Assembly (NCBI RefSeq): GCF_000463015.1
Contig: NC_022247.1
Location: forward strand, 3,348,001-3,412,000
DNA from: Variovorax paradoxus B4
Lineage (GTDB): Bacteria > Pseudomonadota > Gammaproteobacteria > Burkholderiales > Burkholderiaceae_C
Reading direction: 5' to 3'
DNA length: 64,000 nt
Of the stretch, positions 20,037-57,966 are shown one piece after another. Position numbers and translations under genes: made by a program. Numbering within the stretch: position 1 is the stretch's first letter; every line of letters starts with the position of its first letter. Under the pieces are notes generated by a model. That model saw only the letters and a program-made list of their open reading frames with translations. It did no database searches and was not told the origin of the DNA.

Positions 20037-20130
20037 GTGCACAGGGCACCGGGTGCTCCCCGCAGCGAAATCAAGGAGGAGCCGAAGGCGGGGGACATTC
20101 GCGGAGAGGAGTACCCGGTGGCCTGTGCAC
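20037..20130 (+). repeat. Dispersed palindromic element, copy 1
   Basis: A 94-base imperfect palindrome bounded by GTGCAC at both ends. The outer stem pairs GTGCACAGGGCACCGGGT with the reverse complement at 20113-20130. Inside it, GCGAA pairs with TTCGC, and GCC-GAA-GGC forms an apical loop. The sequence between stems is nearly identical to copy 2 (24185-24278), and its core is shared with copy 3 (57871-57948). The left flank (19995-20036) shares TGTTCAGGGC and TTGATCGGC with sequence next to the other copies. It lies between convergent genes, and the reading frames through it are not credible. Confidence 0.75.
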
Positions 20131-20154
20131 GCGCCACGAATAACGCCCCAGAGA

Positions 20155-21078
20155 TCAGACAGGCGTCGTTCCGACATCGGGCTCGCGCACGCCAAAGGGC
20201 TTGCCGGGCAGCGGAATGAACTCGGTCTCGCCAGGCACATGTCCCATGCGCTGGGCGGCCCAGTCGGAGCCGGCTTCCAGGATGCGCTCGCGCCGGCTCG
20301 AGACGAAATTCCAGGTGATGTAGCGCGGGCCGTCGAGCGGCTCGCCGCCGATCACCATCAGGCGCGCGGCGGTGCCGGAGGTCAGCACCGCGCCCTGGCC
20401 ATCGGGCAGCACCGCCATGGTGTGCGCGGGGATCGATTCGCCATTGACGCTCGCATCGGCATCGACAACGTAGACGGCCAACTCGGGTGCCAGTGCGGGC
20501 AGCTCGAAACGGCCGCCTGCGGGCAATGCGATGTCGAGGTAGATCGTCTGCGACAGTGTCTTGACTGGCGAGCGTTGGTCAAAGGCCTCGCCCACCAGCA
20601 CGCGCACCGCCGCGCCCTGCTCCACCACCTCGGGAATGGCACTGGCCGGCGTGTGCTCGAAGCTCGGCTCGGCTTCTTCATGCGCCTGCGGCAAGGCAGC
20701 CCAGAGCTGCAGCCCGTGGTTGACGTAGGTGTCGGCCTTGAGGCGTTCGGGCTTGCGCTCGGAGTGCACGATGCCGCGCCCCGCGGTCATCCAGTTGATG
20801 GCGCCGGGCAGGATCTCCTGCACGCTGCCGAGGCTGTCGCGATGCATCATCGCGCCCTCGAAAAGATAGGTGACCGTGGACAGGCCGATGTGCGGATGCG
20901 GCCGCACGTCGTGCTCCATGCCGGGCTGCTCGGTGGCCGGCCCGAAGTGGTCGAAGAACACGAACGGCCCGACCGAACGGCGTTGCGCCGCCGGCAGCAG
21001 GCGTCGCACCTTGAAGCCGCCGCCGAGGTCCTTGTCGTGCGGTTGAAGCAACTGGGTCTGGGCGGCGGTGTCGGTCAT
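20155..21078 (-). CDS. Pirin family protein
   Basis: A 307-residue bicupin pirin starting at ATG 21078. The N-terminal cupin has the metal-ligand segment 'VRPHPHIGLSTVTYLFEG' and 'GRGIVHSE'; the C-terminal pirin domain follows. Pirins are mononuclear Fe(II) proteins; some act as quercetinases or redox-linked regulators, and the substrate here is unknown. It is the last gene of a four-gene minus-strand set (pirin, DoxX, flavodoxin, pirin) that points to redox or electrophile stress. Confidence 0.9.
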   Translation of the reverse strand: MTDTAAQTQLLQPHDKDLGGGFKVRRLLPAAQRRSVGPFVFFDHFGPATEQPGMEHDVRPHPHIGLSTVTYLFEGAMMHRDSLGSVQEILPGAINWMTAGRGIVHSERKPERLKADTYVNHGLQLWAALPQAHEEAEPSFEHTPASAIPEVVEQGAAVRVLVGEAFDQRSPVKTLSQTIYLDIALPAGGRFELPALAPELAVYVVDADASVNGESIPAHTMAVLPDGQGAVLTSGTAARLMVIGGEPLDGPRYITWNFVSSRRERILEAGSDWAAQRMGHVPGETEFIPLPGKPFGVREPDVGTTPV

Positions 21079-21103
21079 CGTGGGCTCCGTGGGTGACTGG
21101 GTT

Positions 21104-21655
21104 TTATCCGCGCGATCTTGCCACTTCGGCGATGCGCTCGCCGAAAGCGCGCGCGGTGTCGAAGTCGCCCTTGAACATTTCCGCCGGGCTCGCATCCGAA
21201 GGCGACTGCGTCAGCAGGCCGCCGTAGCCGCCCATGTAGTTCATCGAATCGCGCGTGGCCGCCTTGTTGTTGGTCGGCAGGATGCCCATGCTGACCCAGA
21301 TGCCGCTGTGCTGCATCGCGAGCGTCCACAGGTAGCTCAGGGTCGCGACCTTGTCGCCGTTCATGGTGGCGCTGTTGGTGAAGCCCGCGAAGAGCTTGTC
21401 CTTCCAGCCCTGCGTGTACCAGACCTTGGACGACGCATCGGCGAACTTCTTGAACTGCCAGCTCACGCCGCCCATGTAGGTCGGCGAGCCGAAGATGATC
21501 GCGTCGGCCGCGGCCAGCGTCCCCCAACCGCCTTCGGGCAGGTTGCCGTCGGCGTCGATGGCGAGCAACTGCGCGCCCGCGCCGTCGGCCACGGCTTGCG
21601 CCACGCGCTGGGTGTGGCCGTAGCCGGAATGAAAGACGACGACGATGTTTGCCAT
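21104..21655 (-). CDS. Flavodoxin-family NAD(P)H:quinone oxidoreductase-like protein
   Basis: A 183-residue flavodoxin-fold protein. The FMN phosphate loop appears as 'VVFHSGYGHTQRVAQAV', and 'IIFGSPTYMGGVSWQFKKF' and 'YMGGYGGL' match the WrbA-like group. WrbA proteins reduce quinones by two electrons. This protein is shorter than WrbA (about 198 residues) and lacks part of its tetramer insertion, so WrbA itself is not claimed. It lies 25 bp upstream of the pirin gene. Confidence 0.85.
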   Translation of the reverse strand: MANIVVVFHSGYGHTQRVAQAVADGAGAQLLAIDADGNLPEGGWGTLAAADAIIFGSPTYMGGVSWQFKKFADASSKVWYTQGWKDKLFAGFTNSATMNGDKVATLSYLWTLAMQHSGIWVSMGILPTNNKAATRDSMNYMGGYGGLLTQSPSDASPAEMFKGDFDTARAFGERIAEVARSRG

Positions 21656-21709
21656 TGGGCGATTCTCCTGAACGGAAGCGATGATCAGTGGTGTCGAATG
21701 GGGGAGAGC

Positions 21710-22129
21710 CTACTTCTTGTCGACGCTGAAGCGGCCGGGACCGAAGGCCGAGAGGGCGAGCAGGCCACCGGCGATCGCGATGTTCTTGTTGAAGTTGATC
21801 TGCTGCATCATTTTCACGGCGTCGGGCGCCGACCAGTACTTGTGGAAGAACAGCGCGGCGGCCACGGTGAAGATCGCCATCGCAATGGCAGTCCAGCGGG
21901 TCTTGAAGCCCACCAGCAGCGCGATGCCAAGGACGAGTTCGACCAGGATGGCGATCGCGGCGCCTACTTCCGGCAGCGGCAGGCCCACCGAGTTGATGTA
22001 GCCGACGGTGCCCGCAAAGCCCATGAGCTTGCCGATGCCGGCGGGAATGAACAGGTAGGCGATCAGGGCACGGCCGATCAGGGCCAGCGTGTCCTGGGCT
22101 GCGTTGGGGGGGGTGGTGGTGCTTGCCAT
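21710..22129 (-). CDS. DoxX family membrane protein
   Basis: A 139-residue protein with four predicted membrane helices, starting at ATG 22129; an upstream in-frame start at 22198 would add a non-conserved hydrophobic tail. The pattern 'LIGRALIAYLFIPAGIGKLMGF' is typical of DoxX/YphA proteins. Members are linked to redox stress and often sit beside pirins and quinone reductases, as here. No catalytic residues can be named. Confidence 0.85.
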   Translation of the reverse strand: MASTTTPPNAAQDTLALIGRALIAYLFIPAGIGKLMGFAGTVGYINSVGLPLPEVGAAIAILVELVLGIALLVGFKTRWTAIAMAIFTVAAALFFHKYWSAPDAVKMMQQINFNKNIAIAGGLLALSAFGPGRFSVDKK

Positions 22130-22212
22130 GGTTGAAAACTCCTCGATTGTCGAAATGAAAAATGGAAAGGAACAGGGGAAAAAGAAGCCGGGCGACACGC
22201 GCCCGGCATGGA

Positions 22213-22914
22213 TCAGGCGGCCAGGTCGAACACCAGCACTTCGGCATCCTTGCCGGCGCCGAGCGTGAGCTGCGATTCGCCTTCGAGCATCGCGGCGTCG
22301 CCGCCCGCGAGCTTCTGGCCATTGACTTCGAGCTCGCCGCGCACCAGGTGCACGTAGCTCTTGCGCTTCGGATCGAGCGCCAGGCTGGCCTTCTCGTCGC
22401 CGTCGAGCAGGCCTGCGAACAGGCGCGCATCGGCGTGCACCGTCACCGAGCCGTCGGCACCGTCGGGCGAGGCCACGAGGCGCAGCTTGCCGCGCTTCTC
22501 GGCGTCGCTGAACTTCTTCTGCTCGTAGCCCGGCGCAATGCCGCGCACGTTCGGCTCGATCCAGATCTGCAGGAAGTGCGTGGTCTCGTCGGCCTTGTGG
22601 TTGAACTCGCTGTGCATCACGCCGCGGCCGGCGCTCATGCGCTGCACGTCGCCCGGAGGAATGGACTCCACGTTGCCCATGCTGTCCTTGTGCGCCAGTT
22701 CGCCCGAGAGCACGTAGCTGATGATCTCCATGTCCTTGTGGCCGTGGGTGCCGAAGCCGGCGCCCGCCGCCACGCGGTCTTCGTTGATCACCCGCAGGTT
22801 GCCGAAACCCATGTGGGCCGGGTCGTAGTAGCCGGCAAAGGAAAAGCTGTGGAACGAGCGCAGCCAGCCATGGTCGGCATAACCGCGTTCCTGTGATTTA
22901 CGGACTTGCAACAT
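22213..22914 (-). CDS. Pirin family protein, YhhW-like
   Basis: A 233-residue bicupin protein of YhhW length, starting at ATG 22914. The metal-binding motif 'GTHGHKDMEIISYVLSG' and 'GRGVMHSEFN' supply three His and one Glu. YhhW has quercetin 2,3-dioxygenase activity in vitro; whether this one does is unknown. It is the first gene of the minus-strand redox set and is divergent from a LysR regulator. Confidence 0.9.
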   Translation of the reverse strand: MLQVRKSQERGYADHGWLRSFHSFSFAGYYDPAHMGFGNLRVINEDRVAAGAGFGTHGHKDMEIISYVLSGELAHKDSMGNVESIPPGDVQRMSAGRGVMHSEFNHKADETTHFLQIWIEPNVRGIAPGYEQKKFSDAEKRGKLRLVASPDGADGSVTVHADARLFAGLLDGDEKASLALDPKRKSYVHLVRGELEVNGQKLAGGDAAMLEGESQLTLGAGKDAEVLVFDLAA

Positions 22915-23058
22915 CGTCAGACTCCTTCGGCCGTTCCCCGGGGGGATGTTCCGGCCTTCTTCGTATGCCGCGCCGGATGCGCAGCGGATGTGAAGAACTT
23001 TAGGCCCGTACCCCATGGACAAAAGCGCCTGCTTTTGATGGCATCATTCAAATTTTTT

Positions 23059-23074
23059 GATCGATCAATCGATC
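23059..23074. promoter_or_regulatory. Palindromic candidate operator between pirin and LysR genes
   Basis: A perfect inverted repeat GATCGAT-CA-ATCGATC stands just upstream of the LysR start, in the divergent intergenic region of a LysR gene and its presumed targets. LysR regulators typically bind such dyads. Binding is inferred from position and symmetry alone. Confidence 0.45.
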
Positions 23075-23086
23075 CATGGAGCCGCC

Positions 23087-24040
23087 ATGCCCAGCGCCAG
23101 AGACGTACTGACCCCCGATGCGCTCGCCATGCTGCAGACCGTGGCCAGCACCGGCAGCTTTGCCGGCGCCGCGCGCGCGCTCAACCTCGTGCCCAGCGCG
23201 CTCAGCTACCGCGTGCGCCAGATCGAGGACGCGCTCGACGTGCTGCTGTTCGACCGCAGCGCGCGCCAGGCCCGCATCACCGAGGCCGGCGCCGAACTGC
23301 TGCGCGAGGCGGCGCGGCTGCTGGGCGAGATCGATGCGGTGGCCAACCGCGTCAAGCGCGTGGCCACCGGCTGGGAGCCGATGCTGACCATTGCGGTCGA
23401 CAGCGTGATCGCGCGCGACCCGCTGCTCGACCTTGCCACCGCCTTCTTCGCGCTCGATCCGCCCACGCGGCTCAAGCTGCGCGACGAAACCCTGCTCGGC
23501 ACCATCGAGGCGCTGACCAGCGGCGAGGCCGACCTGGCCATTGGCGCGGTGCTCGACGCGGCGAGCCTGGCCTTCACCGCCACCGGCATCCGCAGCCGGC
23601 CCATCGGCGAGCTGTGTTTCGTCTACGCCGTGGCGCCGCATCATCCGCTGGCACGCTTGCCCGAGCCATTGACCGATGCGGTGCTGCGCCAGCATCGCGC
23701 GGTGGCGGCCGCCGACTCGGTGCGCAGCGGGCCCAGCATGACGGTCAACCTCGTCGGCGGACAGGACGTGCTCACCGTGCCGAGCATGCAGGCCAAGCTG
23801 GCGGCGCAGCTGCACGGCCTTGGCGGCGGCTTTCTGCCCGAGCCGATGGCGCGGCCCTACATCGAGGCCGGCCACCTGGTCGAGCGCAAGACCGAACGCC
23901 AGCCGCCCCTGGCCACCATGCACTGCGCCTGGCGCGTGCGCAGCGCGGGCGGGCCGGGCCGCGCGCTCGACTGGTGGCTCGCACAGTTCGAGCACGAGGC
24001 CACACGGCGGGCGCTGCTGGAGCGGCATCGGGGGCGTTGA
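23087..24040 (+). CDS. LysR-family transcriptional regulator, likely controls the divergent pirin/DoxX/flavodoxin set
   Basis: A 317-residue regulator with start ATG 23087 after GGAG (an in-frame TTG at 23057 is less likely). The N-terminal winged helix-turn-helix reads 'TGSFAGAARALNLVPSALSY'. The C-terminal effector domain contains a Cys-poor cleft of the usual length. It is transcribed divergently from the pirin-DoxX-flavodoxin-pirin genes, the classic layout for a LysR regulator and its target. The inducer is not predictable. Confidence 0.88.
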   Translation: MPSARDVLTPDALAMLQTVASTGSFAGAARALNLVPSALSYRVRQIEDALDVLLFDRSARQARITEAGAELLREAARLLGEIDAVANRVKRVATGWEPMLTIAVDSVIARDPLLDLATAFFALDPPTRLKLRDETLLGTIEALTSGEADLAIGAVLDAASLAFTATGIRSRPIGELCFVYAVAPHHPLARLPEPLTDAVLRQHRAVAAADSVRSGPSMTVNLVGGQDVLTVPSMQAKLAAQLHGLGGGFLPEPMARPYIEAGHLVERKTERQPPLATMHCAWRVRSAGGPGRALDWWLAQFEHEATRRALLERHRGR

Positions 24041-24184
24041 CTCGGTGCGAACCGCGCGCTGACTGCACGAAAGGGGCATGTTGGAGTGCATTGTTCGAGG
24101 CGCTGCTGTTCAGGGCACGATCCCGCCGACGTGATCGTTATGCGGACCTGTTCTTGATCGGCCAGTACCACAGCCGCGCCTCTC
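24041..24184 (+). repeat. Repeated flanking module (uninterrupted form) next to element copy 2
   Basis: The stretch from about 24106 to 24180 begins TGTTCAGGGC, continues through CCGCCGACGTGATCGTT and ends with a TTGATCGGCCAGTAC segment. The same module, in reverse orientation and split by element copy 3, occurs at about 57815-57966. A shortened version lies left of copy 1. Nothing in it looks coding. The first 65 bases after the LysR stop show nothing recognisable. Confidence 0.6.
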
Positions 24185-24278
24185 GTGCACAGGGCATCGG
24201 GTGCTCCCCGCAGCGAAATAAAGGAGGAGCCGAAGGCGGGGGACATTCGCGGAGGGGAGCACCCGATGCCCTGTGCAC
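24185..24278 (+). repeat. Dispersed palindromic element, copy 2
   Basis: A 94-base element almost identical to copy 1. Its outer stem is essentially perfect: the left-arm variant GGGCATCGGGTGCTCC is matched on the right by GGAGCACCCGATGCCC. The C-to-T change relative to copy 1 is compensated by G-to-A on the other arm. It has the same inner GCGAA/TTCGC stem and GCC-GAA-GGC apex. It lies between the LysR gene and the FAD oxidoreductase gene. Confidence 0.78.
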
Positions 24279-24375
24279 GCACCCCGAACAGGACACGTCC
24301 TCCTGCCCCGCTCCCGGACCGATGTAGAGTCCGGACACATCCATCCGTCTCCCGTACACAAGAAAAGAGTCCCTC

Positions 24376-25458
24376 ATGACCACTCGCGCAACTGCAAAGG
24401 CGACCGACCGCCACCGACCCCCCGCCGCTCCACGCCACTACGCCGTCGTCGGCGCCGGCATTGCCGGCGTGGCCTGTGCCCGAACGCTGGTGCAGGCCGG
24501 CCACAAGGCCACGGTGTTCGAACGCGAGGCTGCGCCCGGCGGGCGCATGGCCAGCGTCGACTCCGCCTTCGGCCGCTTCGACAGCGGCACGCAGTACTTC
24601 ACCGTGCGCGATCCGCGCTTTGCGCTGGCGCTCGAAGCCACGCCCAATCTCTGCCGTCCCTGGAGCGCAAACCTCGTGCGCGTGCTCGATGCGCACGGCC
24701 GCGTGGCGGAAGCCGCATTGCCCGGGCACGAATCGCATTGGGTGGCGCAGCCCGGCATGGATGCCCTGGTGGCCCACTGGGCCGCGCCGCTGGGCGACAG
24801 CCTCGTGGTCGACACGCAGGTGACGCAGATCGAACCCGACGCGCTCGACCCCAAGCGCTGGCAGCTGCGCACCGCGGGCGAAGACGATTCGCAGCACGTG
24901 TACTCGGGCTTCGACGCCGTGCTGCTGGCCGTGCCGCCCTCGCGCACGCGCGTGCTGCTGGGCGACGGCAAGCTGTCCGCCTCCATCAGCCAGAAGATCG
25001 AGCCGGTGCGCATTGCGCCCTGCTGGACGCTGATGATCGCCTTCCCCCAGGCCAACCAGGCCAACATGTCGCACCTCGGCCCGCAGTGGAATGCAGCGCG
25101 CAGCACCCACCACCGCGTGGCATGGCTCGCACGCGAGTCGTCCAAGCCCGGTCGCGAACGCGTCGAGCGCTGGACGCTGCAGGCCAGCGCCGCGTGGTCG
25201 CAGGAGCACCTGCGCGACGACGCCGCACGCGTCGAAGCCAAGCTGCTGCGCGCCTTCGCCGAGATCACCGGCATCCATGCCGCGCCCACGCACGCCCAGG
25301 CACGCTGCTGGAACGAAGCCCAGACCCAGGTCCCGGTCGGCAAGAGCCACCTGTGGGACGCCAAGGCGCGCATCGGCGTGGCCGGCGACTGGTGCACCGG
25401 CCATCGGGTCGAAGACGCGTTCCTCTCGGGACTCTCGCTGGCGCTCGCAGTGATCTGA
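24376..25458 (+). CDS. FAD-dependent amine oxidase-like (renalase-type) oxidoreductase
   Basis: A 360-residue flavoprotein. The N-terminal dinucleotide-binding fold reads '[21 protein letters not shown]', then '[12 protein letters not shown]' and '[17 protein letters not shown]', a pattern typical of bacterial renalase-like proteins. The C-terminal '[19 protein letters not shown]' closes the FAD site. The substrate is unknown; characterised renalases oxidise isomeric dihydro-NAD(P)H. The preceding region holds a repeat element, and gluQ follows seven bases after the stop. Confidence 0.82.
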
Positions 25459-25465
25459 TCCGCGG

Positions 25466-26389
25466 ATGCGTGAGACCGGCCGTTTCGCGCCCTCGCCCAC
25501 CGGTCCGCTGCATGCCGGCTCGCTGGTGGCCGCGCTCGCAAGCTGGCTCGACGTGCGTGCGCGCGGGCCGCAGGCGCGCTGGCTGATCCGCATCGAGGAC
25601 GCCGACACCGAACGCTGCCTGCCCGACATGGGCGAGCACATCCTCCGGCAGCTGGCCGACTGCGGCCTGCTGCCCGACGAAGCGCCGATATGGCAGACGC
25701 AGCGCACCGAGCGCTACGAAGCCGCGCTGGCAAGGCTGCAGGCCCTTGGCCTTGCCTACCCCTGCGGCTGTTCGCGCAAGGACATCGACGAGGCGCTGGC
25801 ACGGCTCGGCCGGCCGCACACGCGCCATGGTGAGCGGGTCTACCCCGGCACCTGCCGCGACGGGCTGCATGGCAAACCCGCACGCGCCTGGCGCTTCGCC
25901 ACCGAGAAGTTCGAATCCGCCCAGCCGGCACTTGCGTCCGGCGAACTCTGCTGGACCGACCGCCGCCTCGGCCGCCAATGCCAGGACGTCAGCCGCGAGG
26001 TCGGCGACTTCGTGCTGCGTCGCGCCGATGGCCCGTGGGCCTACCAGCTCGCGGTGGTGGTCGACGACGCGGAACAGGGCGTGACCGACGTGGTGCGCGG
26101 CGAAGACCTGGCCGACAACACCGCGCGCCAGATCCTGCTGCAGCGCGCGCTCGGCCTGCCGACGCCCAGCTACCTGCACGCGCCGCTGGTGCGCGGCGCC
26201 GACGGCGACAAGCTCTCCAAGCAGAACGGCGCCATCTCCATCGACACCGCAACGCCCGAAGCCGCCCTGGCCGCCCTCGACACGGCCGCGCGCGTGCTCG
26301 GGCTGCGCGCCGCCACGGCGGCCTCCTGCGCGCCGGCATTGGCCGGCTGGGTGCCCGAATGGCGCGATCTCTACAATTCGCGGCCGTAA
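25466..26389 (+). CDS. gluQ: Glutamyl-Q tRNA(Asp) synthetase
   Basis: A 307-residue truncated glutamyl-tRNA synthetase paralogue without an anticodon-binding domain, as expected for GluQRS. The class I signature is '[20 protein letters not shown]' (HIGH equivalent HAGS) and the second motif is 'KLSKQNG' (KMSKS equivalent). It glutamylates queuosine at position 34 of tRNA(Asp). The stop overlaps the trmB start by one base. Confidence 0.93.
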
Positions 26390-27132
26390 TGACCTTTCCC
26401 AACACCGTGCCCCACGATTCCCCGCCAAGCGACGACGACGCGGCCGACAACAAGCCGCATCCGCTGCACCGCCGCCTCAAGAGCTTCGTGAAGCGCGCCG
26501 GCCGCACCACCGACGGCCAGGCGCGCGCCTTTGCCGAACTGGGCCCGCTGTTCCTCATCCCCTACAAGCCAGAGCCGCTTGACCTGGCGGCGGCCTTCGG
26601 CGGCCGCACGGGCCCGACCGTGCTCGAGATCGGCTTTGGCATGGGCGAGGCCACCGCGCACATCGCCACCGTGCTGCCCGAGACCAATTTCCTGTGCTGC
26701 GAAGTGCACGAGCCCGGCGTGGGTGCGCTGCTCAAGCGCATCGGCGAGCAGTCGATCACCAACATCCGCATCTGCGCGCACGATGCGGTCGATGTGCTCG
26801 ACCACATGCTGCAGCCCGGTTCCCTGGCGGGCGTGCATGTGTTCTTCCCCGACCCATGGCACAAGAAGCGCCACAACAAGCGCCGCCTGATCCAGCCCGA
26901 GTTCGTGAAGAAGCTCGCCGGGCATCTGCAGCCGGGCGGCTACATCCACTGCGCCACCGACTGGCAGCCCTACGCCGAGCAGATGCTCGAGGTGCTGTCC
27001 GCCGAATCGCTGCTGCGCAACACGGCCGAAGGCTACGCACCCAAGCCCGGCTACCGGCCGCTGACCAAGTTCGAGAACCGCGGCCTCAAGCTGGGCCACG
27101 GGGTCTGGGACCTGGTGTTCCAGCGCGCCTGA
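26389..27132 (+). CDS. trmB: tRNA (guanine-N7-)-methyltransferase
   Basis: A 247-residue TrmB forming m7G46 in tRNA. The SAM-binding motif is '[16 protein letters not shown]', followed by '[13 protein letters not shown]' and the family motif '[17 protein letters not shown]'. It shares one base with the gluQ stop. A TACAAT sequence at 26371-26376, inside the end of gluQ, could supply its own promoter. Confidence 0.95.
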
Positions 27133-27152
27133 GGCCGCCCTCCCTGAATCCC

Positions 27153-27174
27153 GGCGGCGAGGCCTCTCGCCGCC
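27153..27174 (+). terminator. Hairpin after trmB
   Basis: A stem GGCGGCGA / TCGCCGCC with a six-base loop, 20 bases after the trmB stop. It is followed only by TTCCCC, so it may act weakly or as a Rho-assisted end. Confidence 0.4.
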
Positions 27175-27231
27175 TTCCCCGCGGGCACCGAACTTGCTAC
27201 ACTTTTTTACTACTGTGAAAAAAGGTGACCC

Positions 27232-28389: not shown

Positions 28390-28393
28390 GGCG

Positions 28394-29113: not shown

Positions 29114-29138
29114 GCGGGGGTTTACCAGAGCCCTGCAT

Positions 29139-29154
29139 TGTCAAATTCTTGACA
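29139..29154. promoter_or_regulatory. CRP-like dyad TGTCA-N6-TGACA
   Basis: A perfect inverted repeat TGTCA-AATTCT-TGACA in the 102-base divergent region between the Crp/Fnr gene and the HD gene. The half-site spacing of six matches CRP-family operators. A second, weaker TTGAACGTCAA dyad overlaps its right side. It is a likely operator of the neighbouring regulator, by position and symmetry only. Confidence 0.55.
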
Positions 29155-49670: not shown

Positions 49671-49853
49671 GATCGGTTCCTTCGTTTCGGATCTGAGTGG
49701 CGAGCGGGTCCATCGCTCGGATGCCGGTGAGCTTAGAAACCGAAGATGACAGGAAAATGAAATTAGCTCAGTACAAAATAACAAATTGATTGAATAATGT
49801 TCAATACAATCCGGCGCCATGGCCGAGATACGGTCGGCCGATACCGGAGATCC
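49671..49853. promoter_or_regulatory. AT-rich divergent region phnD / HAD gene with palindrome
   Basis: The 183-base gap contains an inverted repeat ATTGAA-TAATG-TTCAAT at 49789-49805 and, overlapping its end, a TACAAT -10-like box (49805-49810) reading toward the HAD gene. The dyad is a candidate site for the RpiR regulator encoded downstream. GGAG at 49846-49849 is the HAD gene ribosome-binding site. Confidence 0.45.
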
Positions 49854-51586: not shown

Positions 51587-51668
51587 GGGCCGCGAGCTTA
51601 CCCGCCAACGGTGGCGGTTTCACGTGCCGGCGCGGGTGGCGCGCATACTGGGCCTCCTTTGCTGCTTC

Positions 51669-51690
51669 GGGGCCTCGCCCGCGAGGCCCC
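51669..51690. repeat. Perfect hairpin upstream of methyltransferase
   Basis: GGGGCCTCG-CCCG-CGAGGCCCC, a nine-base perfect stem with a four-base loop, 12 bases before the methyltransferase start. It has no T-run. It could be a transcriptional pause or an mRNA hairpin limiting translation. Confidence 0.45.
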
Positions 51691-51701
51691 GCACCCCTCC
51701 G

Positions 51702-52385
51702 ATGCCGGGCTACCAAATCAAGCTGGAACGCATCGCCATCGCGGGTGCGGACGACCTCGTCATCCGGTCGCTGCTCGACCGCCAACAGTTCTCCGACCCG
51801 CTGGGCGCGGCCGCCGCGCAAGGCATTTCTTCGGCTTCGTGGCCGATGTTCGGCTTGCTCTGGCCGTCGGGCGCACAGCTGGCTGCGCGCATGGCGATAC
51901 ACCCGGTCGTGCTCGGTGCGCGCGTGCTCGAAATCGGCTGCGGTCTGGCGCTGGCGAGCCTCGTCGGCCATCGCCGCGGCAACGACATGACCGCCAGCGA
52001 CTGCCACCCGCTCACCGCAGGCTTCCTGCTGGAGAACCTTCGACTGAATGCGCTGCCGCCCATGAAGTACCGGCGCGGCCACTGGGGCATGCAGGAGACC
52101 GGGGCCGATGGCGACGTGCATGGCCTGTACGACCTCATCATCGGCAGCGACCTGCTGTACGAGCGCGATGCAAAGGGCCTGCTCGCAGCCTTCGTCGGCC
52201 GCCACGCCAGCCCCGCCGCCGCGGTATGGATCGTCGACCCCGACCGCGGCAACCGGCCGGCCTTCAACCGGCAGATGGCCGAAGAGGGGTTCGGCATGTG
52301 CGAGGAGCGGCTGGACCAGCTGGCGACAGTCAATACCGTGGGCTACAGGGGACGATTGCTGACCTACCGGCGAACCACCGGCTGA
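51702..52385 (+). CDS. Class I SAM-dependent methyltransferase, METTL/methyltransferase-16 family
   Basis: A 227-residue protein from ATG 51702. The SAM motif is 'VLEIGCGLALASLVGHRRGNDMTASDCHP', split by the glycine-rich loop, followed by 'LIIGSDLLYERD'. This pattern belongs to the lysine methyltransferase-like family 16. The N-terminal 'WPMFGLLWPSGAQLA' is also typical. The target, probably a protein lysine, is unknown. The 257 bases after it hold nothing recognisable. Confidence 0.75.
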   Translation: MPGYQIKLERIAIAGADDLVIRSLLDRQQFSDPLGAAAAQGISSASWPMFGLLWPSGAQLAARMAIHPVVLGARVLEIGCGLALASLVGHRRGNDMTASDCHPLTAGFLLENLRLNALPPMKYRRGHWGMQETGADGDVHGLYDLIIGSDLLYERDAKGLLAAFVGRHASPAAAVWIVDPDRGNRPAFNRQMAEEGFGMCEERLDQLATVNTVGYRGRLLTYRRTTG

Positions 52386-52642
52386 GGCCCTATATTCGGC
52401 CGTTCCTCATTCGGAAATGGCTGCTTTGTAGTGAAATCCGCCGGACTCCCTTCTCGCTCGGTCAGACGTCGCGTTTCGGGTCTCCGGGGAAATCACTTGA
52501 TCACCGGCACTCAGCAAGCAGGGACGCCGCCGAATGAATGAGTCTTCGCGAATCACGGACCTGCGAGCCTTCCCATCGGCATTGGCAGAGGATGTAGAAG
52601 CCGTGCTTTCGAGTCGTATGACCCACCCGATGAATTTCCGTC

Positions 52643-52954
52643 ATGCAACCGCCCATTCCCTTTGATTGCCGCCTGCAACTGGCCTCCGACACCCATGTCG
52701 AAATCTATTGGTTCCAGCCGAACGGTTTCGTTCGCGCCGTGCTGGGCACACAAGACGGCCCGCAGTGCGCGCCGCTGTTTCGCTACCGGGTTCTTTCCGG
52801 CGACAGCATCGAGCTGATCGGCTCGGACGGCATCATCGATACGTGGACGAACATCCGCGTCGAAAGCGAGCTGCTGCATGCCGAATCCAAAGGCGAGCCC
52901 AAGGCCTTCCGCATCACGCAGGAAGAAGCCGCCGAAAGGGGCCCGCAGCAATGA
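52643..52954 (+). CDS. Small hypothetical protein
   Basis: A 103-residue reading frame starting 'MQPPIPFDCRLQLASDTHVE' and ending in a Glu/Lys-rich tail. The composition is balanced and looks coding, but no family is recognised. There is no signal peptide or membrane segment. There is a possible overlap (ATGA at 52951-52954) with a shorter frame that shows no coding character. About 97 bases separate it from the 3' end of the group II intron. Confidence 0.5.
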   Translation: MQPPIPFDCRLQLASDTHVEIYWFQPNGFVRAVLGTQDGPQCAPLFRYRVLSGDSIELIGSDGIIDTWTNIRVESELLHAESKGEPKAFRITQEEAAERGPQQ

Positions 52955-53092
52955 AAGTCAAACGGCTGGTGCCGGACGCAATCCGTTCGGGAAGCTGGTC
53001 AACATCCTCGCGCACGCGGCCTGATTCGCACGAACGCTACCGCCACCGCCAATCGGATAGGGGCCGGTCAGCGAAGACCGGTCCCCTCCCAC

Positions 53093-53126
53093 ACCACCCG
53101 GCATGCGGGTCCGCACCGGGCGGTTC
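53093..53126 (-). ncRNA. Group II intron domain V
   Basis: A 34-nucleotide hairpin: lower stem CCGCCCGG / CCGGGTGG, a two-base bulge and upper stem TGCGG / CCGCA with a short loop. The length, the bulge and the position between the maturase stop and domain VI match the catalytic domain V of group II ribozymes. Confidence 0.82.
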
Positions 53127-53138
53127 GAGAAGTTGAGG

Positions 53139-54512
53139 TCAGCACAGGCGGGGAACTCCAAGGCGATCGAAGTATGCGATGGTGAGCACCCGGTTCAGGC
53201 CGAGTGCGCTGTTGTGCCACCAACGGCGAGAGTTGCCAGCGATCTGGGCCGCCACGTCGCCGCTGGCGCCCAAGGCGCGCAGTTCACGGTACATGGTCGG
53301 GCCCCGACACCAGAACTTCAACTGGATGGCTCGCAAGCGGTGCCGCAACCATTCGTCCAGTCGCCGCCAGACCGAGGGCGTCTGTGCCAGTTGGAAGTAC
53401 GCCTTCCACCCCGGCAGGAACGCTTGCAGGTCCTGTGCGATCTGGTTCATGCTGCGCCCCGTCTGGCGCCGGGTTATCTGGCGAATGCGCTGCTTGTAGC
53501 GTTGCACCGCCTCCCCGGCCACGGCCAGTTTCACCTGCTTTTGCGGCGCAGCCCACAGGCAGTAGCCCAGGAACTTGCGCCCCCATGCCGTCGCCACAGC
53601 GGTCTTGGTCTCGTTGACCTTCAACCGCAGCTTGGCGTAGCAGGCGCGCACCCCGTCCAGCACCCGTTGCCCGGCACGCTCGCTCTTGACGTAGACGTTG
53701 CAATCGTCCGCGTAGCGCACGAATTTGCGCCCCCTGCGTTCGAGCGCGCGGTCCACCTCGTCGAGCAGCACGTTGGCCAGCAGCGGCGGCGACAGCGGCC
53801 CACCTTGCGGCGTGCCCTCCACGCGCATCTGCATGACCCCGTGCGCCATGATGCCGGCGTTCAGGTAGTGACGGATCAGCCGCAGCACCGCCTTGTCGGC
53901 GATTCGCTTGCCCAGCCGATCCATCAGGATGTCGTGGTTCACGCGGTCGAAGAATTTCCCCAGGTCCACGTCCACCACCACACGTCGCCCTTGCTCCACA
54001 TACTGCCTGGCCGCTTGGACCGCCTGATGCGCGCTGCGCCCCGGCCTAAAGCCGTAGCTGTGCTCGCTGAAGGTCGGATCGATGAGCGGTTGCAGCACCT
54101 GCAACAGGGCCTGCTGGATCAGCCTGTCCACCACGGTGGGAATCCCCAATTCCCGTGTCCCGCCACCCAGTTTGGGAATGCCCACGCGGCGTACCGGACT
54201 GGGCCGGTAGGTACCGTCGAGCAAGCCGCGCCGGATGTCGGGCCATTGGGTCTTCAGGTCTTCCCCCGTTTGCTGCACCGTGCGTCCATCGACGCCGGCG
54301 CTCCCCTTGTTGGCTTTGACGCGTTTCCACGCCGCCGCCATGTTGTGCTGTGCCAGTGCCTGCCCCAGCAGGTCCTCTGGCCCCCAGTGCGTGTGGTCAT
54401 GCCGCGCCGGCCGTGCTTCATCGCGCCCACGCTCCGGCGCGGCTTCACCGCGCCCTTGCGTCGGTCGCTGCGCTTGCACGCACTTCTGATGCATTGCACT
54501 TCCGGTCGGCAT
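53139..54512 (-). CDS. ltrA: Group II intron reverse transcriptase/maturase
   Basis: A 457-residue intron-encoded protein. The reverse transcriptase domains run from 'VKANKGSAGVDGRTV' through 'YGFRPGRSAHQAV' and 'DLGKFFDRVNHDILM' to the catalytic 'RYADDCNVYV'. The maturase X domain includes 'GWKAYFQLAQTPSVWRRLDEWL'. No HNH endonuclease domain follows, as in class C introns. It appears intact, so the intron may still be mobile. The start could also be ATG 54494. Confidence 0.92.
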   Translation of the reverse strand: MPTGSAMHQKCVQAQRPTQGRGEAAPERGRDEARPARHDHTHWGPEDLLGQALAQHNMAAAWKRVKANKGSAGVDGRTVQQTGEDLKTQWPDIRRGLLDGTYRPSPVRRVGIPKLGGGTRELGIPTVVDRLIQQALLQVLQPLIDPTFSEHSYGFRPGRSAHQAVQAARQYVEQGRRVVVDVDLGKFFDRVNHDILMDRLGKRIADKAVLRLIRHYLNAGIMAHGVMQMRVEGTPQGGPLSPPLLANVLLDEVDRALERRGRKFVRYADDCNVYVKSERAGQRVLDGVRACYAKLRLKVNETKTAVATAWGRKFLGYCLWAAPQKQVKLAVAGEAVQRYKQRIRQITRRQTGRSMNQIAQDLQAFLPGWKAYFQLAQTPSVWRRLDEWLRHRLRAIQLKFWCRGPTMYRELRALGASGDVAAQIAGNSRRWWHNSALGLNRVLTIAYFDRLGVPRLC

Positions 54513-54896
54513 ACCTCGTCACTGTCCTTTTCGTTTGGCCCTTCGTCGGGGAACCCGACTACTACGGCCGCTGCTGACTTCTCGCTCCGGGCAAGCCCGT
54601 CGCCCTTTCAGGCACGAGGCGAGATCTCCCCAGGCAAGAACGCGATCCTTCACTGCACAATCGCCCCATTTACGCCACCTCGCCTTGACCACAAGAGCTT
54701 CGCGGTATCGTGCCCGCTCGCCCTGCTCGGCAGCGCCTCAGATGAGGTTTGTGTACCTCGACTCGCGGTTTACGCTTCACGCTTCCTCCCCACGCTCGGT
54801 CGCCCTCACGCAGTTGCGCTTCACTTCGCTCGCTGTGGTCAGCTCGCGGGAGGACTTGCACCTCCAGGATCGCGCCCATGCTGGGCGCACACGAAA

Positions 54897-54916
54897 AACG
54901 GGCCCGAAGGCCCGTT
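54897..54916 (-). terminator. Terminator used as group II intron target
   Basis: Stem AACGGGCC / GGCCCGTT with a four-base loop; on the minus strand it is followed by a short T-run and CGT, after which the intron begins. It terminates the secreted-protein gene 54958-55308. The stem is symmetrical and could serve the plus strand too. Confidence 0.82.
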
Positions 54917-54957
54917 GTTCTTGTCGCGCAGCCGATGCATCGGCTTGCCGTCCTGGC

Positions 54958-55308
54958 TTACAGGCCAGCCTGGCGCGTGAACGACACGCTGGGCTTCTTG
55001 TAGGCTTGCGGCACTTCGTCGCGGTAGAACGCGCGGCGGTCGAGGCTGGCCAGCGGGTCATGCGCCTTGGCAACGGCTTCGGCTTGAACGGTCGCGCGGT
55101 CGGCGGTCGAGGTGAAGGCTTGTGCGCCGGCGGCGGCGCCGTCGCTGTATTCATTGCCGGCACGGGCGGCTGCAACGGCTTGCGGCGCGACTTCGGCGCG
55201 CGAAACGCCCGAGTTCACGGTCAGCACACCTTCATAGGTTTCTGCATGCGCACCGGCGACAGCCAGGAGTGAGAGGGCAGCAGCGGCGAGGACTTTCGAG
55301 GCATTCAT
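54958..55308 (-). CDS. Small secreted protein of unknown function, DUF4148-like
   Basis: A 116-residue protein with a clear Sec signal peptide ending 'AGAHAETYEG'. The mature part is rich in Ala with 'VTVNSG...SRAEV' and 'DPLASLDRRAFYRDEVPQ' segments of the kind seen in abundant small exported proteins of Burkholderiales (DUF4148-type). No catalytic residues are apparent. It is followed by a terminator into which the group II intron has inserted. Confidence 0.65.
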   Translation of the reverse strand: MNASKVLAAAALSLLAVAGAHAETYEGVLTVNSGVSRAEVAPQAVAAARAGNEYSDGAAAGAQAFTSTADRATVQAEAVAKAHDPLASLDRRAFYRDEVPQAYKKPSVSFTRQAGL

Positions 55309-55456
55309 TTCAATCTCCTAATGGGTTGGTTGGTGAGATGAAGTTTGATCCCGAAGCCCCATAAAAAAACGCCGCAAAACGAATCACGGCGTTCACGAGA
55401 TTGAAACAATCGGGCAGATGCCAAGGCACAACCTGCCCCGCAATCTTAGCCAAGGA
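55309..55456. other. Intergenic region between fmdB and the secreted-protein gene
   Basis: The 148 bases hold the start region of the secreted-protein gene (minus) and a stretch with several A-runs. An inverted GCCGC..GCGGC-like segment is seen near 55371-55392, possibly the end of the fmdB transcript. No gene is visible. Confidence 0.3.
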
Positions 55457-55804
55457 TTAGTGCGAAATCATCCAGGGCCGCTTAGCCGGCGCGGACTTGG
55501 CACCGTTCGCCGCCGTGACCGTCGCGCTGCGACGCGACGATGAACCCGAGCAGCAGCCGCAGCCCGCCGGATGCTTGAAGCGCGCGTAGTCGCGCGAGCT
55601 GCCCGGCTCGTGCCGGGCGCGCTCGTTGGTCTCCATCGCACGGCGCGTGCCCGAGGCCATCAGCGCGAGCCACGGTGCGGCCGAAAGTACGCGCGGCGAT
55701 GCACAGCCGCAGTCGGGGCACGCGGCGGGATCGTCGCGCTGGCCCGAAGGCCGCAGCGCCTCGAAGCCGCCGCACTGGCCGCAGGCGTAGTCGTAGGTGG
55801 GCAT
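55457..55804 (-). CDS. fmdB: FmdB family zinc-ribbon regulatory protein
   Basis: A 115-residue protein with the FmdB-type N-terminus 'MPTYDYACGQCGGFEALRP' and a four-Cys zinc ribbon (CGQC...CPDC). A Cys-rich loop 'GCGCCSGSSS' occurs in the C-terminal part. FmdB was described as a putative regulator next to formamidase genes. It begins seven bases after fmdA. Confidence 0.85.
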   Translation of the reverse strand: MPTYDYACGQCGGFEALRPSGQRDDPAACPDCGCASPRVLSAAPWLALMASGTRRAMETNERARHEPGSSRDYARFKHPAGCGCCSGSSSRRSATVTAANGAKSAPAKRPWMISH

Positions 55805-55811
55805 CGGCGTG

Positions 55812-57044
55812 TCAGGCCAGGTCGTGCGACAGCGGCATGTCGATGCTGCCGTCGATCATCTTCATCGGTCCCGCGGCATTCGGGTTGATGTCGAAGTCGA
55901 AGATCTGCGTGGGCAGCCAGAGCGTGGCGCAGGAGTTGGGCACGTCGACCACGCCGCTGATGTGGCCCTGTACGGGTGCCGTGCCCAGGATCGAATAGGC
56001 CTGCGCTCCCGAATAGCCGAACTTCTTCAGGTACTCGATGGCGTTCAGGCAGGCCTGGCGGTAAGCCACGTTCACGTCCAGGTAGTACTGCTTGCCGGCC
56101 TCGTCGACCGAGATGCCTTCGAAGATCAGGTAGTCGCTGTACTGCGGCGTGATCACGCTCGGCTTGAAGATCGGGTTCCTGATGCCGTACTTGGCCATGC
56201 CGCCCTTGATGAGCGTGACCTTCATGTGCACCCAGCCCGCCATCTCGATGGCGCCGCAGAAGGTGATCTCGCCGTCGCCCTGGCTGAAGTGCAGGTCGCC
56301 CACGCTGAGGCCCGCGCCGTCGACGTATACAGGGAAGAACACCTTCGAGCCGCGCGACAGGTCCTTGATGTCGCAGTTGCCGCCGTGCTCGCGCGGCGGC
56401 ACGGTGCGCGCACCTTCGGCCGCCGCCTTGGCGCGCGCCTCGCCGGTCATCCTGCCCATGTGGGCGGTGCCGGCGAACGGCGGATTGGCGAGGCCGGGCA
56501 CGCGGTCCGGGTCGGTGGCGATGAGCTTGCCTTCGCGCTCGTTCCACATGTCGAGCATCGGCTTGTCGGGCAGGCAGCCGATCAAGCCGGGGTGGATCAG
56601 GCCCGCGAAGTTCACGCCCGGCACGTGGCGCGAGCTGGTGAACATGCCCTTGAAGTCCCAGATGGATTTCTGCGCTTCGGGAAAGTGGTCGGTCAGGAAG
56701 CCGCCGCCGTTCTTCTTCGAGAAGAAGCCGTTGAAGCCCCAGAGGCTGTCCTGCTTGGCGCCGATGTCGAGCAGGTCGACCACCAGCAGGTCGCCGGGCT
56801 CGGCGCCCTTCACGCCCACGGGGCCCGAGAGGTAGTGCACGGTGCTCAGGTCGATGTCGCGCACGTCGTCTGCGCTGTCGTTGTTCTTGATGAAGCCGCC
56901 GGTCCAGTCGAAGGTCTCGAGGATGAAGTCGTCGCCCGGGTTGACCCAGCAGGCCATCGGAATGTCCGGATGCCAGCGGTTGTGGATCATCTCGTTCTCG
57001 GTGGGCGGCTTGGTCAGGTCGACCTTGATCAGCGTGTCCGTCAT
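55812..57044 (-). CDS. fmdA: Formamidase
   Basis: A 410-residue acetamidase/formamidase family enzyme starting at ATG 57044. Motifs include 'NRWHPDIP', 'SGPVGVKGAEPGDLLVVDLLD' split at the conserved Gly-Asp, 'GGNCDIKDLSRGSKVFFPVY' and 'GDGEITFCGAIE'. It hydrolyses formamide to formate and ammonia. It follows the urtABCDE-type transporter, matching the arrangement in which short amides are taken up and hydrolysed for nitrogen. Confidence 0.93.
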   Translation of the reverse strand: MTDTLIKVDLTKPPTENEMIHNRWHPDIPMACWVNPGDDFILETFDWTGGFIKNNDSADDVRDIDLSTVHYLSGPVGVKGAEPGDLLVVDLLDIGAKQDSLWGFNGFFSKKNGGGFLTDHFPEAQKSIWDFKGMFTSSRHVPGVNFAGLIHPGLIGCLPDKPMLDMWNEREGKLIATDPDRVPGLANPPFAGTAHMGRMTGEARAKAAAEGARTVPPREHGGNCDIKDLSRGSKVFFPVYVDGAGLSVGDLHFSQGDGEITFCGAIEMAGWVHMKVTLIKGGMAKYGIRNPIFKPSVITPQYSDYLIFEGISVDEAGKQYYLDVNVAYRQACLNAIEYLKKFGYSGAQAYSILGTAPVQGHISGVVDVPNSCATLWLPTQIFDFDINPNAAGPMKMIDGSIDMPLSHDLA

Positions 57045-57085
57045 ATGCAGTGGCTCCTGGTTGGGTTGTGGTTGAACGGAAAAGG

Positions 57086-57787
57086 TCAGACCGAGAGATA
57101 GGCCTTGATGTGGTCCACGTCGGTCTTGTCGCGCGCGGTCTCGTGCACGAGCCGGCCGCCTTCGATCACGAACAGCCGGTCGGCCACGTCGAGCGCGAAA
57201 CTCAGCACCTGCTCGGACACGACGATGGTGATGCCGCGCAGCTTGCGGATCTCGTTGAGGGCCTTGGCAATGTCCTTGATGATTGAAGGCTGGATACCCT
57301 CGGTGGGCTCGTCGAGCAACAGCACCTTGGGATCGGTGACGAGGGCGCGCGCAATGGCCAGCTGTTGCTGCTGGCCGCCCGAGAGGTTGCCGCCCTTGCG
57401 GCGCTTCATGTCCCACAGCACGGGGAACAGCGCGTAGATATCTTCGGGAATGCGCCTCGTCTTCGAGTTCTCCAGGCCTGTCTGGATGTTCTCTTCCACG
57501 GTCAGCGTCGGAAAGATCATCCGGCCCTGCGGCACGTAGGCAATGCCCTTGGCCACGCGGCGAAAGCTCTCGTCGCGCGACACGTCCTGCCCCGCCACTT
57601 CGATGCGCCCGCTCCTGATCGGCAGCACGCCCATGAGGCTCTTGAACAGCGTGGTCTTGCCCATGCCGTTGCGGCCCATGATGGCTATTGTTTCGTTGGC
57701 ATGGCCCTCGAAAGAGATGCCGTGCAGTGCCTCGCTCTGGCCGTAGGCTACGTGAAGGTCTTCTGCCTTCACCATGATGTTGCTCAT
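57086..57787 (-). CDS. urtE: Urea/short-amide ABC transporter ATP-binding protein UrtE
   Basis: A 233-residue LivF-type ATPase with Walker A 'MGRNGMGKTTLFKSLMG', signature 'LSGGQQQQLAIARAL' and Walker B 'VLLLDEPTEGIQPS'. The 'GMGKTT' loop and 'TEGIQPSI' are typical of UrtE. It is separated from urtD by about 200 bases that hold a repeat element, unusual for this operon. Confidence 0.9.
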   Translation of the reverse strand: MSNIMVKAEDLHVAYGQSEALHGISFEGHANETIAIMGRNGMGKTTLFKSLMGVLPIRSGRIEVAGQDVSRDESFRRVAKGIAYVPQGRMIFPTLTVEENIQTGLENSKTRRIPEDIYALFPVLWDMKRRKGGNLSGGQQQQLAIARALVTDPKVLLLDEPTEGIQPSIIKDIAKALNEIRKLRGITIVVSEQVLSFALDVADRLFVIEGGRLVHETARDKTDVDHIKAYLSV

Positions 57788-57814
57788 TTGTTGACTCCTC
57801 TACTGCTCTTGTTC

Positions 57815-57966
57815 TGGGCGCGCTGCCGGTGCTTGGCCGAGCAACGACCTTCGTGTGCAACGATCACGTCGATGGGGTGCCTTGCGCAGCGAAATCAAGG
57901 GGGAGGCCGCAGGCCGGAGGACATTCGCGGAGCAAGGTACCCCGTCGGCGGGATCGCGCCCTGAAC
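57815..57966 (-). repeat. Repeated flanking module split by element copy 3
   Basis: Read on the minus strand, this runs TGTTCAGGGC, GCGATCCCGCCGAC, then (after the element at 57871-57948) GACGTGATCGTT and a GTTGCTCGGCCAAGCACC segment. The uninterrupted equivalent is at 24106-24180. The module fills the space between urtD and urtE. Confidence 0.65.
57871..57948 (-). repeat. Dispersed palindromic element, copy 3 (nested)
   Basis: About 78 bases. The outer stem GGGGTGCCTTGC pairs with GCAAGGTACCCC; the inner GCGAA/TTCGC stem is conserved, and the apex reads GGCC-GCA-GGCC. The outer-stem sequence differs from copies 1 and 2 but the pairing is kept. GTCG (in CACGTCGAT on the left, CCGTCGGC on the right) stands at both ends, compatible with a short duplication on insertion. 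Confidence 0.75.

What the first reader, a model, noticed from the sequence alone, without database searches (positions are those of the whole stretch)
20037..57948. Three-copy dispersed structured element with compensatory stem changes
Copies at 20037-20130, 24185-24278 and 57871-57948 share a conserved core (GCAGCGAAAT...ACATTCGCGGAG) enclosed by long complementary arms. Between copies 1 and 2 a C-to-T change in the left arm is matched by G-to-A in the right arm. Copy 3 has a different outer-stem sequence but keeps full pairing, and its apical hairpin changes from GCC/GGC to GGCC/GGCC. Conserved pairing with changing sequence implies selection on, or a mechanism depending on, secondary structure. 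It could be a REP/MITE-like element mobilised in trans or a family of structured RNAs. I do not recognise the family.
Basis: seen in the sequence. Interest (0 to 1): 0.75.

Follow-up and report, generated by a model that had tools for sequence, protein, structure and literature searches.

The report
Conserved twin-hairpin mobile DNA repeat family
The three look-alike folded sequences are each a half-deleted copy of a twin-hairpin repeat found dozens of times in this soil bacterium and its relatives; its stems keep changing sequence but stay paired around a nearly fixed loop, so the folded single strand seems to be what matters.

Summary
The window's genome holds 62 strict cores; 46 of 61 genomes examined in the genus carry it, up to 124 cores. 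Covariance models find it in three more families, one outside the order. The complete unit is a pair of ~95-nt hairpins in inverted orientation between inverted repeats TTCRGGGCGC/GCGCCCYGAA, with two different arm sequences (A, B). I read all three window copies as deletion derivatives: copies 1 and 2 keep hairpin A, copy 3 keeps B. All 22 arm pairs with letters throughout covary, while an internal loop (UNAAGGRGGA/GGRGGACA) hardly changes. On the core strand G.U outnumbers A.C 601:50, so that strand is selected folded, single-stranded. At 3 sites where a near relative has the element, this genome has only a 3-51 bp spacer. Best reading: a non-autonomous mobile element that works like a REPIN/MITE. 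It fails REP/REPIN membership: no GTAG tag, no element beside 42 of 78 PF01797 places examined, three carriers without PF01797. The mobiliser is unknown and an RNA role is not excluded. Rfam has no match; nine paper searches found no description.

The parts
19990..20002 (-). Copy 1: left terminal inverted repeat (TTGTTCAGGGCGG; the - strand reads CCGCCCTGAACAA)
20003..20036 (+). Copy 1: linker (GTCGTTGATCGGCGG...); hairpin B is missing between the terminal repeat and the linker
   Evidence: by comparison; same kind of deletion in L370
20037..20130 (+). Copy 1: hairpin A (arms plus core; core 20062-20106)
   Evidence: R1 90.1 bits
20131..20145 (+). Copy 1: decayed right terminal repeat (GCGCCACGAATAACG)
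   Evidence: by eye
24107..24118 (-). Copy 2: left terminal inverted repeat (TGTTCAGGGCAC on +)
24117..24139 (+). Copy 2: collapsed remnant of hairpin B (ACGATCCCGCCGACGTGATCGTT): outer arm halves joined, core lost
   Evidence: by eye; compare L297
24140..24184 (+). Copy 2: linker
24185..24278 (+). Copy 2: hairpin A, 26-bp fully paired outer stem in the predicted fold (core 24210-24254)
   Evidence: R1 99.2 bits
24279..24290 (+). Copy 2: right terminal inverted repeat (GCACCCCGAACA)
57809..57821 (-). Copy 3: left terminal inverted repeat (TTGTTCTGGGCGC on +)
57822..57858 (+). Copy 3: linker; hairpin A is missing between the terminal repeat and the linker
   Evidence: by comparison
57859..57955 (+).
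   Evidence: R1 90.1 bits at 57864-57953
57956..57968 (+). Copy 3: right terminal inverted repeat (GCGCCCTGAACAA)

Best explanation
A non-autonomous mobile DNA element of about 260 bp in Variovorax: inverted terminal repeat, hairpin of one arm class (core on -), linker of ~50 nt, hairpin of the other arm class (core on +), inverted terminal repeat. Because the two hairpins are inverted, either DNA strand, and a transcript from either side, carries one hairpin in its functional orientation, always the distal one. Shown: high copy, twin architecture, presence/absence at orthologous sites, arm covariation, near-fixed loop, strand-specific wobble. Inferred: a trans-acting protein recognises the folded single strand through the fixed purine loop and the shape of the stem, most likely as ssDNA handled by an HUH-type or other transposase. 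Copies are tolerated mainly just behind stop codons and then decay by hairpin deletion, giving singles like the three in this window. The mobiliser is not identified.
For: 62 strict cores in this genome, reversed control 1; 46 of 61 genus genomes, up to 124 cores. Adjacent cores under 400 bp apart: 101 -+, 3 ++, 0 +- (overlapping loci counted again; 89 distinct -+ twins). Terminal motif GCGCCCYGAACA at 58 places against 2 for the reversed control, 44 of 58 within 400 bp of a strict core; internally deleted derivatives keep one or both terminal repeats. Arms: 22 of 22 pairs with letters throughout have double compensatory changes, covariation 0.710 against 0.07-0.14 with partners slid. On the core strand G.U 601 against A.C 50 over 261 distinct arm pairs; 315 against 49 without bp 7 and 13. 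Over all 310 elements arms pair best with their own partner: WC 0.82 against 0.54 with a random other element's right arm. At 3 sites where near relative G020 has the element, this genome has spacers of 13, 51 and 3 bp instead of 251, 356 and 363 bp (four flanks were searched, the fourth had no match). Copy 2's site: of 28 relatives printed, 1 has half an element and none of the others shows one in the printed sequence (one row was cut); copy 1's site: 1 of 8 relatives has an (altered) element (drawn from the 30 best loci only).
Against: No transposase recurs next to the elements in the loci clustered, and none of the 42 PF01797 loci examined has an element. No target-site duplication of 4, 5, 6, 8 or 9 bp in 46 twins with both terminal repeats. 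No element was caught with its own gene. 14 of 20 loci fetched from a near relative are shared by descent, so movement is rare. Low core divergence in resident copies (8 of 560 against 959 of 10200 in flanks) would also fit a host function or gene conversion, and is biased because both sides were found by their cores. The empty sites are not polarised (gain or clean loss).
Confidence: 0.6

Rival explanations
1. The selected molecule is RNA: each hairpin is a 3'-UTR element (mRNA end protection, processing or protein binding through the purine loop), spread by transposition but kept because of the RNA.
For: G.U far exceeds A.C on the core strand. Of 35 own-genome elements with both neighbours assigned, 24 lie between tandem and 10 between convergent genes, 1 between divergent genes; in 25 of the 34 non-divergent ones a called gene ends within 60 bp of the hairpin, measured to 30 nt before or after the core (counted from the rows). 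The fixed loop differs at 8 of 560 positions in orthologous copies against 9.4% in flanks.
Against: Background gaps are few and not clearly different: 10 tandem, 3 convergent, 3 divergent of 16 in the same loci, and 9, 2, 2 of 13 element-free gaps in the window. Single hairpins between tandem genes show no preferred orientation: 8 with, 7 against the genes (rows). The wobble bias fits ssDNA too. Core divergence is biased by ascertainment. No expression data.
Confidence: 0.3
2. A true REP/REPIN or RAYT/TIRYT-associated repeat family whose cognate Y1 transposase sits elsewhere in the genome or has been lost.
For: Same lifestyle: inverted doublets, high copy, extragenic, no target duplication seen. 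PF01797 is present in 58 of 61 Variovorax genomes and 17 of 20 carriers, 16 over the family cut-off. The loop end GGGGACA(T/C) is close to the GGGGWSAS motif that Di Nocera et al. report for TIRs of TIRYT genes (section 16 read; comparison by eye). The same section says REPtrons can be lost by deletion.
Against: 0 of 42 PF01797 loci examined (of 78 places found) contain an element. G035 (10 cores), G080 (15 cores) and G392 (14 model hits, a capped count), all at least 99% complete, have no PF01797 match. The gene is also in element-free genomes. GTAG in only 9 left and 2 right flanks of 310. Hairpins are about 90-110 nt, not 20-40.
Confidence: 0.2
3. Not mobile by any enzyme: old palindromes kept alike by gene conversion, template switching and recombination between copies.
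For: Orthologous copies exchange apical hairpins and loop states as blocks; a chimeric B/A element in G029; a block variant with TTC beside the core shared by 14 of 310 elements, also seen.
Against: Empty sites with only a 3-51 bp spacer between the neighbouring genes, tens to over a hundred dispersed copies and per-genome arm families call for insertion.
Confidence: 0.08
4. Spread by a group II intron reverse transcriptase acting on a structured RNA (an intron lies 3 kb from copy 3, and the loop resembles a ribosome-binding site, as I recall for intron domain IV).
For: Rfam group II intron matches at 54538-54809; AAGGAGG in the loop of many copies.
Against: No sequence link between the intron and the element was seen; not tested across genomes.
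Confidence: 0.02

Closest known systems
REPINs / REP doublets with RAYT (Bertels and Rainey 2011, PMC3116915, abstract seen)
   Same: Short extragenic palindromes in inverted doublets, high copy, thought to be moved in trans, predicted to fold in ssDNA or mRNA
   Different: Hairpins about 90-110 nt with a fixed core and internal loop; the two halves carry different arms; terminal inverted repeats outside; no RAYT found next to them; no GTAG tag
GTAG- and CGTC-tagged REPs and TIR repeats of TIRtrons (Di Nocera et al. 2013, PMC3733652, abstract and section 16 seen)
   Same: Located behind genes, between tandem or convergent ORFs; dimers; CGTC REPs also lack a dedicated transposase; some TIRs are self-complementary and some share GGGGWSAS, close to GGGGACA here
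   Different: 20-40 bp palindromes with an unpaired end tag; here the commonest left-side CGTC lies inside the paired arm; Variovorax, Polaromonas, Burkholderi-, Acidovorax, Rhodoferax and Delftia do not occur in that paper's main text
MITEs (recalled; papers on them seen only in search listings)
   Same: Terminal inverted repeats, ~260 bp, intergenic, no gene
   Different: No target duplication and no parent transposon found; the main conserved parts are internal hairpins, not the ends
Integron attC sites (recalled, not tested)
   Same: Arm sequence free to vary while a strand-specific folded shape is kept
   Different: Here the core is fixed and copies are dispersed singly or as twins, not in cassette arrays

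Membership tests
REP/REPIN | High-copy extragenic palindromes in inverted doublets | tested here: met
   (5 of 45 own-genome groups fell inside a called ORF, probably miscalls)
REP/REPIN | 20-40 bp palindrome with an unpaired GTAG or CGTC end tag | tested here: not met
   Stem plus loop about 90-110 nt. GTAG in 9 of 310 left and 2 of 310 right 45-nt flanks; CGTC in 84 and 134 of 310, the commonest left offset (47 of 84) being inside the paired arm; right offsets not tabulated
REP/REPIN | REP copies flank a rayt gene | tested here: not met
   0 of 42 PF01797 loci examined (2.0-3.3 kb each, of 78 places found) has a model R1 hit at E 0.1
REP/REPIN | A Y1 transposase encoded in carrier genomes | tested here: inconclusive
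   58 of 61 Variovorax, element-free ones included; 17 of 20 chosen carriers
REP/REPIN | Single-stranded hairpin processed by TnpA-REP | not testable with these tools
   needs a cleavage assay
MITE | Terminal inverted repeats | tested here: met
   46 of 89 distinct twins (several genera) have TTCRGGG and CCCYGAA at both ends; motif 58 against 2 control in the genome
MITE | Target-site duplication | tested here: not met
   For lengths 4, 5, 6, 8 and 9 at most 1 of 46 twins matches at any offset; 2-bp matches reach 20 and 3-bp 6 at single offsets, the 2-bp peak falling inside the terminal repeats. The true outer ends are uncertain
MITE | Parent transposon with the same ends | tested here: inconclusive
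   No recurrent transposase among the neighbouring-gene clusters shown; two 3-kb stretches between inverted cores hold a TIR-domain gene plus an unmatched ORF, or ORFs without obvious transposase that I did not scan
Rfam RNA family | Match to one of 4227 models | tested here: not met
   Only group II intron matches in the window; for four element loci six matches at E up to 5, all far below gathering score

The most novel reading that the evidence does not exclude
A previously undescribed class of mobile structured nucleic acid, found in at least two orders of Gammaproteobacteria (GTDB sense), recognised through a fixed asymmetric purine loop (UNAAGGRGGA/GGRGGACA, with a near-obligate A/G or G/A swap and wobble pairs at fixed helix positions 7 and 13) rather than through stem sequence, moved by an unknown non-RAYT machine and possibly co-opted as a 3'-UTR RNA element.
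Probability: 0.3. Interest if true: 0.82.

Novelty: new variant of a known kind. Interest (0 to 1): 0.62.

Why it matters
It is a large repeat family (up to 124 cores per genome) that Rfam lacks and that nine literature searches did not turn up, with about as strong sequence evidence for single-strand folding as comparative data can give. It offers a clean case for the old question of whether bacterial palindromic repeats are kept as DNA for a transposase or as RNA for the host, since the fixed loop and fixed wobble positions give specific mutants to test. It also points to an unidentified mobilising enzyme in well-studied plant- and soil-associated bacteria.

Tried and rejected
First genome pattern was one base out of register and found one copy; replaced. 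RAYT as the obligate partner: not supported. The weaker PF01797 scores in element-free genomes (beside) may be phylogeny only and were not used. Composite transposon between distant inverted cores: the G048 3-kb stretch has a TIR-domain gene and an ORF without Pfam match, the G065 stretch ORFs that I only looked at. Clustering of called genes around the element loci gave, among the 25 largest clusters, families that looked metabolic, transport or regulatory by eye, no transposase recognised (not annotated by a library). Target duplications: none. Rfam, permissive threshold: nothing relevant. Phages and viral contigs: none; plasmids: 3 Variovorax replicons of 1.2-1.3 Mb, 14 places. Intrinsic terminator: no hit over copies 1 or 2 (one search covered 19900-24420; copy 3 not scanned). 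Exact core strings in papers: 104 papers hold at least one of four short strings; the 20 listed look unrelated by title and abstract start. Enrichment for tandem/convergent gaps is only suggestive, the background being 16 plus 13 gaps. An early ORF list made copy 2 look divergent, but the conserved gene to its left is 23057-24040 on +.
Full report
CHECK. They fold better than shuffles (z -3.5, -6.6, -4.7; 0 of 200 as good in each). The compensatory C-T/G-A pair and the apical change are real. A covariance model built later, with these copies among its rows, finds exactly these three places in the window, at 90.1, 99.2 and 90.1 bits.

COPY NUMBER. The pattern GCGAAATN{12,42}ACATTCGC has 62 places in the window's genome (29 forward, 33 reverse) against 1 for the reversed-pattern control. 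Only 3 of 62 are on the smaller replicon C1 (1.35 of 7.15 Mb; binomial p 0.003). In the genus, 46 of 61 genomes examined carry GCAGCGAAATN{15,40}ACATTCGCGG, up to 124 cores (G029, 57+67). In the family, 15 of 150 genomes and 13 of 141 genera. Named carriers in the scan, which stopped at 120 rows, include Rhodoferax, Ramlibacter, Pseudorhodoferax, Hydrogenophaga, Xylophilus and Polaromonas, plus MAGs labelled Stagnimonas and Gammaproteobacteria whose binning I did not check.

WIDER RANGE. Model R1 (45 sequences) hits 13 of 300 genomes of the order: five of the window's family (the window's genome included), six genomes of one genus of family f13, and two genera of family f21. In most f13/f21 cores shown the sequence is GCGAAGTAAAGGAGGAG...GGGGGACATGAGC. 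Model R2 (39 sequences) hits 4 of 369 genomes of the class: the window's, one of its family, and two genera of family f63, listed as same class but not same order; in some of their hairpins the GCA/GGA loop or the inner stem is replaced while the purine loop stays. Both searches use stricter filters and score at most 14 or 11 candidates per genome, so counts are lower bounds.

ANATOMY. In 310 distinct elements collected from the loci held at that point the parts are: an outer stem of 22-26 bp; a GCA/GGA internal loop (273 of 310); a 5-bp inner stem; an asymmetric loop AUNAAGGRGGA/GGRGGACA; an apical hairpin of variable length. Adjacent cores closer than 400 bp are 101 -+, 3 ++ and 0 +- (overlapping loci recounted; 89 distinct -+ twins, 81 of them with 94-110 bp between cores). 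The two hairpins of a Variovorax twin have different arms, A (GTGCACAGGGC...) and B (AACGATCACGTCG...). By the strict pattern, 17 of 45 own-genome groups are twins and 28 single, several singles having a mutated second core. Outside lie inverted repeats TTCRGGGCGC/GCGCCCYGAA, recognised at both ends in 46 of 89 twins. The motif GCGCCCYGAACA occurs at 58 places in the genome against 2 for its control; 44 lie within 400 bp of a strict core. I fetched the other 14: 8 belong to six element derivatives that lost one or both hairpins or have a diverged core (L296, L297, L302, L303, L305, L307), and 6 look like chance matches, mostly in genes (L298-L301, L304, L306).

THE WINDOW'S COPIES. Copy 1: left repeat, linker, hairpin A; B missing. 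Copy 2: left repeat, collapsed B remnant (24117-24139), linker, hairpin A, right repeat. Copy 3: left repeat, linker, hairpin B, right repeat; A missing. These assignments are read by eye.

WHAT IS SELECTED. On alignment A1, 96.9% of structure cells pair (shuffled mean 67.8%, slid 37-42%); 22 of 22 arm pairs with letters throughout have double changes; covariation score 0.710 against 0.07-0.14 slid. The rows are 3 window copies and 42 of 48 picks made for arm diversity from 263 candidates that already paired at 19 or more of 22 positions (six picks were left out), so the percentage is flattering. The slid and cross-element controls on all 310 are not selected that way: Watson-Crick 0.82 with the own partner, 0.28-0.33 slid, 0.54 with another element's arm. 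Over 261 distinct arm pairs: 4791 Watson-Crick, 601 G.U, 50 A.C, 300 other; without bp 7 and 13, 315 against 49. Bp 7 is G.T in 190 of 310 and bp 13 T.G in 179 of 310. Double-stranded DNA cannot see this asymmetry, so the core strand acts folded, as RNA or ssDNA. The two central purines: A..G 252, G..A 46, A..A 7, G..G 0 of 305 parsed; 5 distinct cores (one element each) of the 310 did not parse. In the wide alignment: 22, 14, 2 and 0, plus one C..G. Against the rule, one G000 orthologue (L027, unparsed) reads G..G. Copies are related, so the Fisher p of 1.6e-47 overstates independence, but both states recur in distant families.

BEHAVIOUR. I fetched 20 of the G020 loci listed. Fourteen share the site with a G000 element. 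Of the other six I put flanks of four into one search: three had a clear match, and at all three G000 has no element, with 13, 51 and 3 bp between stop and start codon against 251, 356 and 363 bp in G020; the fourth flank had no match; two were not tested. So the missing stretch is longer than the repeat-to-repeat unit. In one pair (L377/L009) the two genomes kept opposite halves of the twin. In 13 pairs, 20 hairpins are in both and 4 deleted in G000; differences are 8 of 560 in the fixed core, 73 of 879 in arms, 25 of 188 in apical hairpins, 959 of 10200 in flanks. Both genomes' loci were found through their cores, so the low core rate is biased, and exchange between copies is visible. Of 68 changed arm pairs, 37 stay standard pairs and 31 do not, so resident copies also decay. 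Loop states changed as a pair (A..G to G..A or back) in 5 of 20 hairpins. Gene context by a GC3 heuristic: 45 element groups, 12 -E-, 12 +E+, 10 convergent, 1 divergent, 5 inside a called ORF (probably miscalls), 5 unassigned; background 16 gaps in the same loci (10 tandem, 3, 3) and 13 in the window (9, 2, 2).

MOBILISER. PF01797 is found in 58 of 61 Variovorax genomes, once in all but one of these, with or without elements; it is absent from G035, G080 and G392 among 20 chosen carriers; 0 of 42 loci examined, of 78 places found, has an element within the 2.0-3.3 kb held. No other recurrent transposase was recognised. The loop end GGGGACAT, or GGGGACAC in L318, L320 and L329, is close to the GGGGWSAS motif described for TIRs of TIRYT genes (section 16 of PMC3733652 read; my comparison by eye): a lead, not a test.

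LITERATURE. Nine paper searches gave no description of this family among the papers listed. Seen: abstracts of PMC3116915, PMC3733652, PMC8266576; passages of PMC2817692 and PMC6006769; one section of PMC3733652. Most subscription papers are not held, so absence is not proof.

VERDICT. A real, conserved and dispersed twin-hairpin element. It works like a REPIN or MITE and meets some but not all of their defining features. Whether the folded strand acts as ssDNA or RNA, and what moves it, are open.

Noticed in passing
window 54538-54809, minus strand (ORF 53139-54512 minus downstream): Group II intron RNA matches (RF02001, RF01998) 3 kb from copy 3; the ORF after it may be its reverse transcriptase.
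   Followed up: no
G000 C1 versus C2: Cores are depleted on the smaller 1.35-Mb replicon (3 of 62, p 0.003), although three Variovorax plasmid records of 1.2-1.3 Mb do carry copies.
   Followed up: partly
L037, L032, L052, L057, L062: Single B hairpins are followed by a similar sequence (ACAAATGCAGCTTC.GCAA.GC) and, in L037 and L062, by a shared small gene; may be another repeat or cassette family.
   Followed up: no
L062 2972-5014: A 3-kb stretch between a B hairpin and an A-like hairpin carries a TIR-domain protein and a second unmatched ORF, possibly a defence island.
   Followed up: partly
own-genome B hairpins, e.g. L013, L019, L024: A shared block change in the right arm (GGAGCAAGG to TTCGCCGCG) breaks part of the pairing yet occurs in many copies.
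   Followed up: no
flanks of elements, e.g. L048, L308, L367, L369: Outside the terminal repeats the left flank tends to be T/G-rich and the right flank A/C-rich with degenerate ~15-18 bp repeats of the terminal motif (by eye), and this region is also missing at the empty sites, so the true ends may lie farther out.
   Followed up: partly
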